Under the pieces are notes generated by a model. That model did no database searches, was not told the DNA's origin, and saw nothing but the letters and a program-made list of their open reading frames with translations. A stretch of DNA of 64,000 nucleotides from Rhodospirillales bacterium (GTDB lineage: Bacteria; Pseudomonadota; Alphaproteobacteria; Rhodospirillales; Magnetospirillaceae): the NCBI GenBank assembly GCA_019455065.1, contig JACFNC010000009.1:79101-143100 (forward strand). Reading direction: 5' to 3'. Made by a program: the position numbers and the translations under genes. Position 1 is the first letter of the stretch; each line of letters begins with the position of its first letter. Positions 3-5,490 of the stretch are shown piece after piece.

Positions 3-3000
3 GGTCTGATCGCCGGCGGCGTCGACGCCATCCTTGCCGAAACCTGCCAGGACCCGCTGCAGATCAAGGCGGCGGTCAACGCCGCCAAGATCGCGCGCGG
101 GCAGGCCGGCGTCGCGACGCCCGTCTTCGTCCAGGTCACCGTGGAGACGAACGGCACCTTGCTGGTCGGCTCCGACATCGCCGCCGCCGCCACCGTCGTT
201 CATGCTCTCGACGTGCCGCTTCTGGGCCTCAACTGCGCCACCGGGCCCCAGGAGATGACCGAGCACGTCCGCTGGCTGGCGGCCAACTGGCCGGGCTTCG
301 TCTCGGTGCAGCCGAACGCCGGGCTGCCGCAACTCGTCGACGGCCACACCGTCTATCCTCTGGCGCCGGACGACATGACCCCCTGGCTCGAGCGCTTCGT
401 CGTCGAGGACGGGGTGGGCCTGATCGGCGGCTGCTGCGGCACCAACGCGGATCACATCGCGGCCCTCGACGCCATGCTGCGGCGGTTGGCGGGCGGCGGC
501 CTTCGCCCGGCACCGGTGCGCCGCAAGGCGGTCTGGATGCCCTCGGTCGCCTCGCTCTACGGCCAGGTGCCGCTGCGTCAGGAAAATGCCTTCCTGTCGA
601 TCGGCGAACGCTGCAACGCCAACGGCTCGAAGCAGTTCCGCACCCTGCAGGAGGCCGAGGACTGGGACGGCGCGGTGGCGATGGGCCGCGAGCAGGTGCG
701 CGAGGGCAGCCACACGCTTGACGTCTGTACCGCCTTCGTCGGGCGCGACGAGGTGCGCGACATGACCCAGGTGGTCGGTCGCATGCGCGGTTCGGTGAAC
801 GCGCCGCTGGTCATCGATTCGACCGAGCTGCCGGTCATCGAGGCGGCGCTCAAGCTGTACGGCGGCAAGGCGATCATCAATTCGGTCAATTTCGAGAACG
901 GCGAGGAGCCGGCCGCGGCCCGCCTCGCCCTGGCCCGCAAATTCGGCGCCGCGGTGATCGCCCTGACCATCGACGAGGCGGGCATGGCCAAGGACGTCGA
1001 GGCCAAGGTGGCGCTTGCGCATCGCCTTTACGATTTCGCCGTCAACCGCCACGGTTTGCCGCCCTCGGACCTGCTGTTCGACCCGTTGACCTTCACCATC
1101 TGCACGGGCAACGAGGACGACCGGCGCCTCGCCCTCAATACTTTGGATGCCATCGAGCGCATCCGCGCCGAATTGCCCGACTGCCAGATCATCCTCGGGC
1201 TGTCGAACGTCTCGTTCGGCCTCAAGGCGGCCGCGCGACACGTCCTCAACTCGGTCTTCCTCGAACATGCCCTGCGCCGTGGCATGACCGGCGCGATCGT
1301 CCACATCTCGAAGATCACGCCCCTCCACAAGATCGCCGAGGGCGAGGTGAAGGTGGCGGAGGACCTGATCTTCGATCGCCGGAGCCCGGGCTATGATCCG
1401 TTGCAGGCGTTCATCGCCCTGTTCGAGGACCGCAAGGCGGGGGAGGGGGCCGTCAAGGCGCGCGCCGAGGCGGTGGAGGAGCGCCTGCGGCAGCGCATCG
1501 TCGATGGCGACCGGCAGGGGCTGGACGCCGACCTGGACGAGGCGATGGCCCGCTACTCGCCGCTCGAAATCATCAACACCATCCTTCTCGACGGCATGAA
1601 GGTGGTGGGCGAACTCTTCGGGGCGGGAAAGATGCAACTCCCGTTCGTCCTGCAATCGGCGGAGACGATGAAGGCCGCCGTCGGCTGGCTCGAGCCGCAC
1701 ATGGACCGCGTGGAGGGCCAGCAGAAGGGAACCGTGGTGCTGGCGACGGTGAAGGGCGACGTCCACGACATCGGCAAGAACCTGGTCGACATCATCCTCA
1801 CGAACAACGGCTACAAGGTGGTCAATCTCGGCATCAAGCAGCCGATCGGCGCCATCATCGCCGCCGTCCGCGAACACAATGCCGACGCCGTCGGGATGTC
1901 GGGCCTGCTGGTCAAATCGACCGTGGTCATGCGTGAGAATCTCGAGGAGCTGACGCGCGAGGGGCTGGACGTCCCGGTGTTCCTGGGTGGCGCGGCGTTG
2001 ACCCGCAAATATGTCGAAGAGGACTGCGTCGAGGCCTATGGCTGCGGTCGTGTGGCCTATGCCCGCGACGCCTTCGACGGGCTGGACCTGATGGCCAAGG
2101 CGGCGGACGGCCGGTTCGACGAGCACCTTGCGGAGGTTCGCGCCAAGCGCGTAGGCCGCCCGGCCAACACCCGCCGCGTCCTAGGCCAGGCGGCGCAGCC
2201 GGCCGTGCTGCGACCCGTCGACCATGAGGAGATCAAGCTCCGCCGTGAAGCGCTGGCCCGCAGTTACGAGGTCCCGGAGCCTCCCTTCTGGGGCGCGCAG
2301 ATCGTCGACCGCATCTCGCTGAACCGTGTGCGCGCGCTGCTCAATGAAACCATGCTCTATCAGTTTCATTGGGGCTACAAGAAGGCGGGACGCACGCTCG
2401 ACGAGTTCCGCGCGTGGGCTGACAGGGAGTTGCGGCCGATCGTCGACGACATGCTCGCGCGCTGCGCCGCCGAGGACATCCTGCAGCCGCGGGCCGCCTA
2501 TGGGTTCTGGAAATGCGCGGCGGAGGGCGATTCGCTGGTGCTGTTCGACACCGATGGCATTACCGAGGTCGCGCGGTTCGGGTTTCCCAGACAGAACACT
2601 CCGGGCGGGCTGTGCATCGCCGACTTCTTTCGCGACATCGCATCGGGCGAGCGCGACGTCGTTGCCCTGCAGGTGGTGACCATGGGCGAAACGGCCTCGG
2701 AAACCGCGCGGCGATGGTTTGCCGAGGACCGGTACAAGGATTACCTTTACCTCCATGGGCTGAGCGTCGAGATGGCGGAAGCGTTGGCGGAATGTTTGCA
2801 CCGGCGCATCCGGGCCGAACTCGGCTACGCCGGCGAGGACGACCCCGACGTCCAGCGGATGCTGCGGCAGGGATACCGGGGCAGCCGTTACAGTTTCGGC
2901 TATCCCGCCTGCCCGAACATCGAGGATCAGCGACAGTTGCTGGCACTGCTCGGCGCCGACCGCATCGGCGTGCGCCTGACCGAGGAATTCATGCTCGATC

Positions 3001-3062
3001 CCGAGCAGAGCACCAGCGCCATCGTGTCGCTGCACCCGCAGGCGAAGTACTTCTCCGTGTAG
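3..3062 (+). CDS. metH: Cobalamin-dependent methionine synthase MetH (5' end outside window)
   Basis: Transfers a methyl group from methyltetrahydrofolate through enzyme-bound cobalamin to homocysteine, giving methionine in the cytoplasm. The frame is open from base 3, so about 1019 residues are visible and the N-terminus is missing. Fragment numbering: the homocysteine domain carries the three zinc cysteines (Cys78 in NCATGP, Cys144-Cys145 in GGCCGT). A pterin-binding domain follows (IGERCNANGSKQF). The cobalamin domain has DVHDIG with the cobalt-ligating His at about residue 588 (codon 1764-1766). The C-terminal reactivation domain includes FSFGYPACP. The domain order is that of full-length MetH, so no separate activation protein is needed. 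A B12 riboswitch, if present, would lie outside the window. The stop is 22 bp before the CULT gene. Identification is firm. Confidence 0.97.
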   Translation, partial: GLIAGGVDAILAETCQDPLQIKAAVNAAKIARGQAGVATPVFVQVTVETNGTLLVGSDIAAAATVVHALDVPLLGLNCATGPQEMTEHVRWLAANWPGFVSVQPNAGLPQLVDGHTVYPLAPDDMTPWLERFVVEDGVGLIGGCCGTNADHIAALDAMLRRLAGGGLRPAPVRRKAVWMPSVASLYGQVPLRQENAFLSIGERCNANGSKQFRTLQEAEDWDGAVAMGREQVREGSHTLDVCTAFVGRDEVRDMTQVVGRMRGSVNAPLVIDSTELPVIEAALKLYGGKAIINSVNFENGEEPAAARLALARKFGAAVIALTIDEAGMAKDVEAKVALAHRLYDFAVNRHGLPPSDLLFDPLTFTICTGNEDDRRLALNTLDAIERIRAELPDCQIILGLSNVSFGLKAAARHVLNSVFLEHALRRGMTGAIVHISKITPLHKIAEGEVKVAEDLIFDRRSPGYDPLQAFIALFEDRKAGEGAVKARAEAVEERLRQRIVDGDRQGLDADLDEAMARYSPLEIINTILLDGMKVVGELFGAGKMQLPFVLQSAETMKAAVGWLEPHMDRVEGQQKGTVVLATVKGDVHDIGKNLVDIILTNNGYKVVNLGIKQPIGAIIAAVREHNADAVGMSGLLVKSTVVMRENLEELTREGLDVPVFLGGAALTRKYVEEDCVEAYGCGRVAYARDAFDGLDLMAKAADGRFDEHLAEVRAKRVGRPANTRRVLGQAAQPAVLRPVDHEEIKLRREALARSYEVPEPPFWGAQIVDRISLNRVRALLNETMLYQFHWGYKKAGRTLDEFRAWADRELRPIVDDMLARCAAEDILQPRAAYGFWKCAAEGDSLVLFDTDGITEVARFGFPRQNTPGGLCIADFFRDIASGERDVVALQVVTMGETASETARRWFAEDRYKDYLYLHGLSVEMAEALAECLHRRIRAELGYAGEDDPDVQRMLRQGYRGSRYSFGYPACPNIEDQRQLLALLGADRIGVRLTEEFMLDPEQSTSAIVSLHPQAKYFSV

Positions 3063-3084
3063 GGCTCATAGGCCGAGAACGTTC

Positions 3085-3462
3085 ATGCTGCGCGAAACCG
3101 AGGTCGAGAACGCGCCCGAAACCGCCGGCAGGGATGACGACGAGGCCCTATACTGCATCGCCTGCGGCGCATTGGTTACCCGGTCGCGGTGGCGCTTCAC
3201 GATGAACGACGATCACGAGCACGTGGTGTTCAACCCGGCCGGGTTGGTCTTCCGCGTTCTTTGCTTTCGCGAGGCGCCGGGTGCCGCGGCAATCGGCCCT
3301 GCCACGGGTGAGTTCACCTGGTTCCGGGGATTTCGCTGGCGTGTCGCTTCGTGCGCGGGGTGCGGCGTCCAGTTGGGATGGCGCTTCGAAGGAAAGCCGT
3401 TCCCCCGGTTGTTCTTCGGTCTCGACCAAGCGCGGCTGAGCACCAAACCCCCGCCAACCTGA
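3085..3462 (+). CDS. Single-domain CULT protein (cereblon-type ligand-binding domain)
   Basis: A 125-aa protein consisting almost wholly of a CULT domain, the beta-fold that in eukaryotic cereblon binds thalidomide-type drugs and C-terminal cyclic imides. Seen in the sequence: two CxxC zinc knuckles (Cys24/Cys27 and Cys90/Cys93), the block DHEHVVFNPAG (43-53), and three aromatic-cage tryptophans, Trp79, Trp85 and Trp99, followed by Phe101. From memory, the structurally studied Magnetospirillum gryphiswaldense protein (MsCI4) has its cage at the same numbers, with Tyr at 101; the FNPAG and GEFxWF blocks also match. No signal peptide or membrane segment is evident, so it is probably cytoplasmic. 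It lies 22 bp after metH without a strong Shine-Dalgarno, suggesting co-transcription. The native ligand and role of bacterial CULT proteins are not established; a link to methionine metabolism is only inference from position. Confidence 0.9.
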   Translation: MLRETEVENAPETAGRDDDEALYCIACGALVTRSRWRFTMNDDHEHVVFNPAGLVFRVLCFREAPGAAAIGPATGEFTWFRGFRWRVASCAGCGVQLGWRFEGKPFPRLFFGLDQARLSTKPPPT

Positions 3463-3539
3463 GCGGCCCATGGTCGTAAGGGCGTCTTGATCCCCATCTA
3501 TAAAGGGAAATTCCAAAGTCGCGGCCGGCGGAGGTGGCG

Positions 3540-4241
3540 ATGGAACTCACCGCGCTGCATGTCGAGATCGTCGTCCGTCTTGGCAGCGCTTGGCTGGTTG
3601 GCAGCCTGATCGGCCTCGAGCGAACGTATCATGGGCGCCCGGCGGGGTTCCGCACTCATGGCCTTGTATGCGGCGCGTCGGCGCTCTTGATGCTGGTCAC
3701 GGGATATCAGGCCGAATGGCTTCCCGCCGAACTCAAACTGGAGACGGTGCGCACCGATCCCGCACGCATGGCCCAGGGCATAATGACCGGCATCGGATTT
3801 CTTGGCGCCGGCGTGATATTCCAGGAAGGACTGACGGTCCGCGGCCTCACGACGGCCGCATCCATCTGGATCACCGCGGCCCTGGGCATCCTGTTCGGCA
3901 TCGGCTTCTATTATCCGGCCCTGGTCGCGGCGATATTCACGTTCGGCACGTTGTCGGTGTTCCGCTGGTGGGAGGATCGCATGCCCACCGAGGTCTATGC
4001 CCGTACGGCTTTGAAGTTTCTCCGCGAGGAAACCATGCCCGAAAAGGACGTGCGGGCGTTGATCGCGAACCACGGATTCGCGCTGGCCAGCCTCGGCTAT
4101 CGGTTGAGCGAGGACGGACGGGCCTTCGAATATCGCTTGGTGATCCGTACGGCCGACAAGCGCAACATCGAAGGCCTCGTCGCCACTTTGCGCGGCATGA
4201 CCGAGGTGCGAGAGTTCCAGCTCGCGCTGTTCAGCGACTGA
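3540..4241 (+). CDS. MgtC/SapB family membrane protein
   Basis: A 233-aa inner-membrane protein of the MgtC/SapB family. The N-terminal half has several hydrophobic segments and the family signatures LIGLERTYHGRPAGFRTHG (about residues 20-40) and GIMTGIGFLGAGVIF (about 75-90). The C-terminal 90 residues are soluble and resemble the ACT-like tail of longer family members. MgtC proteins affect growth in low magnesium and membrane energetics by modulating the F-ATP synthase or potassium homeostasis; the exact role here is unknown. The ATG at 3540 is chosen because GGCGGAGG (3527-3534) sits six bases upstream; a GTG two codons earlier overlaps that site. Its stop overlaps by 11 bp the stop of the convergent histidine-kinase gene. 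It may be transcribed with the CULT gene, 77 bp upstream. Confidence 0.88.
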   Translation: MELTALHVEIVVRLGSAWLVGSLIGLERTYHGRPAGFRTHGLVCGASALLMLVTGYQAEWLPAELKLETVRTDPARMAQGIMTGIGFLGAGVIFQEGLTVRGLTTAASIWITAALGILFGIGFYYPALVAAIFTFGTLSVFRWWEDRMPTEVYARTALKFLREETMPEKDVRALIANHGFALASLGYRLSEDGRAFEYRLVIRTADKRNIEGLVATLRGMTEVREFQLALFSD

Positions 4242-5430
4242 TGCTGACGGGGAGCGGAAAGCGGACCGCGAATGAGCTTCCCCGGGGCGGGTGACCGACG
4301 GAAAGGCGGCCGCCGATCTGGCGGGTCAATGAATTGACGATGCGCATGCCAAGTCCCTGCGAACGCTTGGGATCGAACGTGGCCGGCAGTCCGCACCCAT
4401 CGTCGGCGACGGTCAGTACGGCTTCCGCATCCGCGGTGGTGAACGACACCTCGATCATGCCGTCGCCGGCTAGGAAGGCATGTTTCAGCGAGTTCATGAC
4501 CAGCTCGGTGGCGATCAGCGCGACCGGAATTGCCAAGTCCGTGGCGACCCGGACGGGCGCTCCCCGCGCCTCGATCCGGCTGCCGTCCCCCGTGGAGCGC
4601 CGCAGCTCTTCGCACAGATCGCGCAGATAGACGTCCATGTCGACCTGCTGCACGTCGCCGCCCTGATAGAGGCGGGCATGCACCTGGGCCAGCGCGATCA
4701 CCCTGGCGCCGGCCTCCATCAGGGCGCGGGTCGCGGTTTCGTCTTGGAGGCGGGTGCGCTGCATCTCCAGCAATGAAACCACCATCTGAAGGGAATTCTT
4801 CACCCGGTGGTTCACCTCCTTGAGGAGGAGGTTGGTCTGTTGAAGCAGTTTCTCCTTGTCGTTCAGGGCCTTGGACAACTCGGCGGCGCGCTGCTCGGCC
4901 ATCCGCGTCAGTTCCAGGCGTTCCATGGCCATCGAGAGGTATGAGGAGAGGGTGGCCAGCAGTTTGACCTCGTGGTCGGCGAGACAGGTTCGGCGTCGCG
5001 AACCAAAACACAGGGTGCCCAGCATGCGTCCGCGGCAGATCATGGGAAAGCCCGCGTAGGCGAGCAATTCCAGATCGCGGAGCGAGGCGGCCGCGGGGTC
5101 GGAACTCTTCGGGACGTCGTTCAGGAGCAGCGGCACCCGTCGTTCGGCGACCATGCCGCAAGCCGTTTCTCCGAAGGCCAACGTGCGCAAGCTTTGCTCC
5201 TGGGCCGGGGAGATGCCGGCCGCCGAGAACAGACGGAGGGCCCGCCCGCCGTCGCCAACCACGTAGCTGATGAACATGTCCAGGCCGAGTTGCTCGGAAA
5301 CCAGCTCGAACAGCCCTTTGGCCGCTGCGGCCGGGTCGTCTGAGGACAACAGGGCCTCGGCAGCGCGGCGTGGAATGTCCATATCCATATTCAGGTACGA
5401 CGTTCTGTCCGAGGGGTGAATGTCCAACAT
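4231..5430 (-). CDS. GAF-domain sensor histidine kinase (HisKA_2/HWE-like)
   Basis: A probably cytoplasmic sensor kinase of about 399 aa. The N-terminal half is a GAF-type sensor domain (roughly residues 20-170) and is followed by a short coiled coil. The dimerisation/phosphoacceptor helix has EVNHRVKNSLQ, with His at about residue 208. The ATPase domain shows the N box (ATELVMNSLKH), G1 (DDGCGLP) and G2 (QGLGMRIV). This is the HisKA_2 arrangement common in alphaproteobacteria, where such kinases often feed the general stress response or c-di-GMP circuits. No response regulator is adjacent, so the partner is unknown. No hydrophobic span was seen. The start is uncertain: an upstream GTG (5490) and Met codons at 5430, 5388 and 5382 are possible, and none has a clear Shine-Dalgarno. 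Confidence 0.9.
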   Translation of the reverse strand: MLDIHPSDRTSYLNMDMDIPRRAAEALLSSDDPAAAAKGLFELVSEQLGLDMFISYVVGDGGRALRLFSAAGISPAQEQSLRTLAFGETACGMVAERRVPLLLNDVPKSSDPAAASLRDLELLAYAGFPMICRGRMLGTLCFGSRRRTCLADHEVKLLATLSSYLSMAMERLELTRMAEQRAAELSKALNDKEKLLQQTNLLLKEVNHRVKNSLQMVVSLLEMQRTRLQDETATRALMEAGARVIALAQVHARLYQGGDVQQVDMDVYLRDLCEELRRSTGDGSRIEARGAPVRVATDLAIPVALIATELVMNSLKHAFLAGDGMIEVSFTTADAEAVLTVADDGCGLPATFDPKRSQGLGMRIVNSLTRQIGGRLSVGHPPRGSSFAVRFPLPVSISR

Positions 5431-5490
5431 TGACGATCTAGCCACGCTCGCAGCTCGTTTTGCTGCGTTTCGAAGAGAGTTGCCGCCCAC

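What the first reader, a model, noticed from the sequence alone, without database searches (positions are those of the whole stretch)
3085..3462. Bacterial CULT-domain protein with an intact thalidomide-type cage next to metH
The 125-aa protein keeps both zinc CxxC pairs and the three cage tryptophans (Trp79, Trp85, Trp99) that bind cyclic imides in cereblon, with Phe101 in place of the Tyr I recall from the Magnetospirillum protein. The natural ligand of bacterial CULT proteins is not established. The gene lies 22 bp after metH and before an MgtC-family gene. A ligand tied to succinimide, cyclised peptide ends or SAM/methionine turnover is possible but is my inference.
Basis: partly seen in the sequence, partly recalled or inferred. 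Interest (0 to 1): 0.75.

Follow-up and report, generated by a model that had tools for sequence, protein, structure and literature searches.

The report
Bacterial thalidomide-cage protein beside metH
This bacterial gene encodes a stand-alone copy of the small three-tryptophan domain to which thalidomide binds in human cereblon; it is likely to grip ring-closed (cyclic imide) ends of damaged proteins, and since no other locus examined has it next to the methionine-synthase gene, that placement is probably incidental.

Summary
Window 3085-3462 (+) encodes a 125-aa single-domain CULT protein (phmmer 2.7e-33 to the solved Magnetospirillum MsCI4; about 48% identity). Its AlphaFold2 model (pLDDT 86.9) superposes on MsCI4-thalidomide, e.g. 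5amh 0.8 A and 4v2y_A 1.2 A. Both CxxC pairs and all three cage tryptophans are present. Phe101 is ordinary: Phe in 97, Tyr in 118 of 216 aligned rows, and a Y101F MsCI4-thalidomide structure exists (4v32). The family is known; 6 of 120 listed relatives are named 'cereblon family protein'.

The metH link fails. metH lies near CULT in 1 of 114 distinct CULT loci, this one; CULT follows metH in 1 of 30 metH loci of the family, again this one. Neighbours differ between lineages. The best recurring one, GatCAB with a DUF1932 gene, also occurs without CULT (6 of 21 CULT-less against 13 of 27 CULT-bearing genomes of one family, counted by eye).

Most likely function, inferred: a reader of C-terminal cyclic imides on damaged proteins, as reported for human cereblon. 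What it does with them in bacteria is untested.

The parts
3085..3462 (+). CULT-domain protein (bacterial cereblon-type), 125 aa; Cys24/27/90/93 (zinc motifs), cage Trp79/85/99, hairpin-tip NPAG 50-53, Phe77, Phe83, Phe101
3..3062 (+). metH, cobalamin-dependent methionine synthase (its start lies before the window); stops 22 bp before CULT; not a conserved neighbour of CULT
   Evidence: TIGR02082 over cut-off; neighbour survey
3534..4241 (+). MgtC-family gene downstream (my gene caller prefers ATG 3540); not a conserved neighbour of CULT
   Evidence: PF02308 4.2e-38

Best explanation
The gene encodes a single-domain CULT protein whose three-tryptophan cage, predicted from sequence and model, likely binds cyclic imides (aspartimide or glutarimide ends) at the C-termini of damaged or Pcm-methylated proteins. 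Shown here: family membership, the cage and CxxC residues, a confident model with the MsCI4 fold, and the lack of a conserved pathway neighbour. Taken from papers (passages): MsCI4 holds glutarimide by backbone bonds inside the Trp cage; human cereblon recognises C-terminal cyclic imides, which arise by Asn cyclisation in protein damage or through PCMT1. Inferred: the bacterial protein reads the same ends and either shields them or hands the marked protein to a protease; this last step has no evidence. Its place after metH is probably a lineage-specific position that provides expression, not a pathway link.
For: PDB match to MsCI4; AlphaFold2 model and its superposition on MsCI4-thalidomide, including the Y101F-thalidomide entry 4v32. 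Trp79 216 of 216, Trp85 216 of 216, Trp99 215 of 216, Asn50 217 of 217 and the four CxxC cysteines 216 of 216 in aligned bacterial rows (rows overlap between sources, so they are not independent). Cereblon reads C-terminal cyclic imides, which PCMT1 or backbone cleavage can make (PMC11974815). A Pcm-family match occurs in 315 of 317 genomes of the order, own genome included, so a possible writer is at hand. Different neighbours in different lineages fit a general role better than one pathway.
Against: No binding data for this protein. Pcm is near universal (315 of 317, and 14 of 14 control genomes), so its presence does not discriminate. CULT is patchy (82 of 317 genomes of the order), odd for a core quality-control factor. 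I recognised no protease or LON-type gene beside it, but not every neighbour was identified. MsCI4 also binds uracil and uridine (PMC4287342). Phe83 and Phe101 both lack hydroxyls that MsCI4 has, so affinity may be lower. Trp-cage geometry was not measured, as no coordinates were available.
Confidence: 0.5

Rival explanations
1. The cage senses a free small ligand such as uracil, uridine or another cyclic imide or ureide, not a protein end.
For: A screen of MsCI4 found uracil and uridine binding (PMC4287342 passage); a deoxyuridine complex, 4v31, is the first Foldseek row. In L085 and L086 a gene that I read by eye as dihydroorotase precedes the PlsY-type gene that precedes CULT.
Against: A later paper says that no biological context for uridine recognition could be consolidated (PMC4449219 passage). 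Pyrimidine genes were noticed beside CULT in few lineages.
Confidence: 0.25
2. CULT works with MetH: its ligand belongs to methionine, SAM or cobalamin turnover and the two genes form a functional operon.
For: 22-bp gap, same strand, no terminator-like site found in 2900-3700. In 12 loci (11 named Desulfobacterota-type organisms, 1 unnamed) CULT follows a SUMT/HemD-type gene of tetrapyrrole synthesis (Pfam checked on L128 only), a loose cobalamin echo.
Against: metH is found in 1 of 114 distinct CULT loci, the own one; of the 113 others 95 have at least 1.5 kb on both sides. 0 of 29 other family metH loci have CULT within the 1.5-kb flank (at least two, L152 and L167, are cut short downstream).
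Confidence: 0.06
3. CULT is tied to Asn/Gln-tRNA amidation or to the neighbouring amidohydrolase (GatCAB, Amidohydro_3, DUF1932 block) in one related family.
For: Gat genes within 10 genes of CULT in 15 of 114 distinct loci, Amidohydro_3-type gene in 11, DUF1932-type gene in 14 (Pfam checked on L197 only). In family f27, GatB and the DUF1932 gene lie within about 8.5 kb of each other in 13 of 27 CULT-bearing genomes (counted by eye).
Against: In 6 of 21 f27 genomes without CULT (G111, G112, G113, G114, G117, G132) the two genes lie within 3.5 kb, so the block does not depend on CULT; in the other 15 they are apart, missing or on different contigs. Fragmented assemblies and kinship blur the comparison. 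The window has none of these genes beside CULT.
Confidence: 0.07

Closest known systems
MsCI4 (MGR_0879), Magnetospirillum gryphiswaldense cereblon isoform 4, PDB 4v2y and others
   Same: Single CULT domain, same fold in the model, CxxC pairs, three Trp, NPxG hairpin; about 48% identity
   Different: Phe83 and Phe101 instead of Tyr, Leu59 instead of Trp, Gln96 instead of His, Asp114 instead of Ile (alignment); different gene neighbours from the Magnetospirillum loci examined
CULT (thalidomide-binding) domain of human cereblon
   Same: Significant sequence match, fold; no Tyr hydroxyl at the base of the cage, as here (PMC8900816)
   Different: No LON domain or DDB1 part; Ala52 where human has His353 (PMC8900816 gives Ala52 for MsCI4; Ala52 here)
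MsrB, yippee, Mis18 and other beta-tent proteins
   Same: Distant common fold and zinc site according to PMC4287342 (passages)
   Different: Only weak phmmer rows here (MsrB3, E about 0.4); no sign of enzyme activity tested

Membership tests
CULT domain, bacterial group | Significant sequence similarity to CULT proteins | tested here: met
   phmmer 2.7e-33 to MsCI4, about 1e-9 to cereblon
CULT domain, bacterial group | Two CxxC zinc motifs | tested here: met
   Cys24/27 and Cys90/93; zinc itself not observed
CULT domain, bacterial group | Three cage tryptophans | tested here: met
   Trp79, Trp85, Trp99
CULT domain, bacterial group | The tryptophans form one pocket | tested here: inconclusive
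   Model superposes on MsCI4-thalidomide, but I had no coordinates and measured no Trp-Trp distances
CULT domain, bacterial group | NPxG motif at the hairpin tip | tested here: met
   NPAG at 50-53
CULT domain, bacterial group | Protein consists of the CULT domain alone | tested here: met
   125 aa, match 22-122; residues 1-20 of low confidence
CULT domain, bacterial group | Binds cyclic imides / thalidomide | not testable with these tools
   No binding assay; inferred from MsCI4
Cereblon proper | LON domain and DDB1-binding region fused to CULT | tested here: not met
   Single-domain 125-aa ORF between metH and mgtC
metH-CULT functional operon | Adjacency conserved in relatives | tested here: not met
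   1 of 114 distinct CULT loci and 1 of 30 metH loci, both this genome

The most novel reading that the evidence does not exclude
Bacterial CULT proteins are a ubiquitin-free counterpart of cereblon: Pcm closes C-terminal Asn into a cyclic imide, or damage does, and a stand-alone CULT protein reads that end and routes the marked protein to a protease or shield, so a C-terminal imide degron code exists in bacteria.
Probability: 0.25. Interest if true: 0.8.

Novelty: new member of a known kind. Interest (0 to 1): 0.3.

Why it matters
MsCI4, the solved relative, serves as a soaking surrogate in cereblon drug design (PMC8900816, passages), yet I saw no account of what bacterial CULT proteins do in bacteria. 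This survey removes one tempting lead (metH), weakens a better-looking one (GatCAB), and shows the gene in many different chromosomal places. It leaves a simple biochemical test: does the protein bind proteins that end in cyclic Asn or Gln? A protein that naturally has Phe at 83 and 101 is also a natural counterpart of the engineered Y101F MsCI4.

Tried and rejected
Rejected: metH/SAM linkage. Weakened: GatCAB linkage (CULT-less control). Pcm co-occurrence as a test of the writer idea: uninformative, 315 of 317. PpiC parvulin as a needed partner: it lies within three genes of CULT in 13 distinct loci as a single-domain protein and directly upstream in 6 more as a double-domain one, but the own genome shows only weaker matches (51% over residues 26-103, and 26%). 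TrmFO, another neighbour in relatives, lies on another contig, and the TrmH-type neighbour has only a 28% match. Phage or plasmid carriage: no match in the phage and plasmid collections; in IMG/VR 72 stretches matched a pattern and none was confirmed. Rfam: no hit in the own locus. Promoter and terminator scan of 2900-3700: nothing, which says little in a high-GC genome.

One paper on the genesis of cyclic imides is not held.

Limits and dropped rows: gene calls come from my own hexamer script, not a standard caller; several calls missed the CULT gene, which I then placed by profile. Duplicate loci were dropped by CULT DNA: 96 kept of 113, 114 of 153. Four of 96 lacked a neighbour and were left out of the 92. 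The partial G023 row was left out of the tree. Some loci are cut by contig ends. Many names of neighbours are read by eye; Pfam was run on ten of them.

Full report
OBSERVATION. Window 3085-3462 (+) is an open reading frame of 125 codons with an ATG start. metH ends at 3062 (TIGR02082 over its cut-off), leaving 22 bp. The next gene is MgtC family (PF02308, 4.2e-38), same strand, start 3534 or 3540. Pfam and NCBIfam give nothing for the 125-aa protein at E 0.01. phmmer against PDB sequences gives 2.7e-33 to MsCI4 and about 1e-9 to 1e-7 to cereblon chains. The protein carries Cys24/27, Cys90/93, Trp79, Trp85, Trp99 and the NPAG hairpin tip.

STRUCTURE. AlphaFold2 on the 30-row alignment A1 gave mean pLDDT 86.9 and pTM 0.78; ten-residue blocks from 21 to 100 average 92-98, block 101-110 is 86, block 111-120 is 97, and the N-terminal 20 residues are 48-59. 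Foldseek against PDB puts MsCI4 entries in the first 39 rows. Rmsd varies among rows: 5amh 0.8 A over 99 columns and 4v2y_A 1.2 A over 103, both with thalidomide; the first row, 4v31_C, 1.7 A; a few rows are above 3 A. I had no coordinates, so the geometry of the three tryptophans was not measured; that they share one pocket is inferred from the superposition.

THE PHE AT 101. Across 216 aligned rows the position is Tyr 118, Phe 97, Trp 1 (121 database proteins and 96 loci that overlap). [quoted passage not shown] 4v32 is the Y101F mutant with thalidomide. Phe101 therefore does not spoil the cage. The window's protein also has Phe83 (Tyr 177, Phe 25 of 216); PMC4449219 (passages) says that Tyr83 hydrogen-bonds the third flexible region. 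I predict somewhat lower affinity than MsCI4.

DISTRIBUTION. 33 of 99 genomes in the relatives search have a match (own genome counted), and 82 of 317 genomes of the order. A scan of GTDB contigs confirmed 369 places, of which the best 80 were kept: mostly Rhodospirillales- and Desulfobacterota-type organisms by title, and a few Acidobacteriota (origin labels). A protein search gave 1382 proteins at E 1e-3; of the 120 listed, 6 bear the name 'cereblon family protein'. No match in the phage and plasmid collections, none confirmed in IMG/VR. In a rough tree of 83 rows the 19 family-f1 proteins group together with the window's protein at the base (85/51, not strong). Families f17, f19, f22 and f25 keep together, f20 only by an open fork; f27 and f9 are not resolved as groups, and two f27 rows pair with f16 and f11 rows. 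So descent within the family is likely for this protein, and the wider history is not settled.

NEIGHBOURS. I took 153 CULT loci, 114 distinct by CULT DNA, and called genes with my own script. tblastn of metH, metF and mgtC hit only the own locus, 1 of 114. Of the 113 others, 95 have at least 1.5 kb on both sides. From the metH side: 52 of 55 family genomes have a metH match; of the 30 metH loci fetched with 1.5-kb flanks, CULT and mgtC were found only in the own one (at least two others are cut short downstream). A metF-like gene, read by eye, precedes metH in the own and in most of these loci. So, as far as examined, the metH link is private to this genome.

WHAT STANDS THERE ELSEWHERE. Directly upstream on the same strand: a SUMT/HemD-type gene in 12 loci; PpiC parvulins in Magnetospirillaceae; SDR genes, a Der-type GTPase (by eye), a PlsY-type acyltransferase. 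Pfam was run on one locus of each of the SUMT/HemD, PpiC, PlsY and SDR kinds. In family f27 GatC-GatA-GatB often lie upstream and an Amidohydro_3 and a DUF1932 gene downstream: Gat genes in 15 of 114 distinct loci. This looked meaningful, since GatCAB makes Gln- and Asn-tRNA (recalled) and cereblon reads cyclised C-terminal ends. The control is mixed to negative: of 48 f27 genomes 27 have CULT; GatB and the DUF1932 gene lie within about 8.5 kb of each other in 13 of the 27 and within 3.5 kb in 6 of the 21 without CULT (counted by eye). The block thus exists without CULT. In 92 distinct loci with both neighbours present, CULT has a same-strand gene within 60 bp upstream and none within 60 bp downstream in 38, against 251 of 1195 other genes of the same loci; the downstream gene is on the other strand in 57 of 92 against 398 of 1195. 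Loci are related, so I give no p-value. The own gene meets the 60-bp rule (77 bp to the mgtC ATG), though mgtC is on the same strand.

FUNCTION. MsCI4 binds uracil and uridine as well as thalidomide (PMC4287342, passages), and a later paper said that no biological context for uridine could be consolidated (PMC4449219). For cereblon the C-terminal cyclic imide is now reported as the recognition motif; it arises by Asn cyclisation in damage or through PCMT1 (PMC11974815, passages; restated in PMC13001092, passages). PF01135 has a match in 315 of 317 genomes of the order and in 14 of 14 controls: compatible, not discriminating. I commit to a cyclic-imide-end reader at 0.5; the downstream step in a cell without ubiquitin is unknown. 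All other papers were seen as search listings only.

AN UNEXPLAINED RESIDUE. Cys60, outside the zinc motifs, is Cys in 214 of 217 rows (Leu 2, Ser 1). It lies in the strand at 55-61. I do not know its role.

VERDICT. A real and ordinary member of a known and interesting family; the metH story is not borne out by relatives. Interest 0.3.

Noticed in passing
window 3262-3264 (codon 60 of the CULT gene) and related CULT proteins: A cysteine outside the zinc motifs, Cys60, is conserved in 214 of 217 aligned bacterial CULT rows; role unknown.
   Followed up: partly
L109, L111, L115, L117, L120, L122, L128, L136, L137, L140, L142, L143: CULT directly follows a SUMT/HemD-type gene in 12 loci, in several behind hemC-, gmhA- and adk-like genes named by eye (Pfam on L128).
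   Followed up: partly
L182, L185, L191, L194, L197 and related f27 loci: CULT sits inside a GatCAB ... Amidohydro_3-DUF1932 neighbourhood whose GatB-DUF1932 pair also lies together in 6 of 21 CULT-less genomes of that family.
   Followed up: yes
L053-L057, L061, L032, L047 and others: A small PpiC parvulin lies at or near the upstream side of CULT in many Magnetospirillaceae loci; in six genomes of genus g5 it is a double-domain protein.
   Followed up: partly
window 4231-5490 (-): A GAF plus HWE/HisKA_2 histidine kinase gene converges on the mgtC gene and overlaps it by 11 bp.
   Followed up: no
L022 (G073): One CULT protein has Cys in place of cage Trp99.
   Followed up: no
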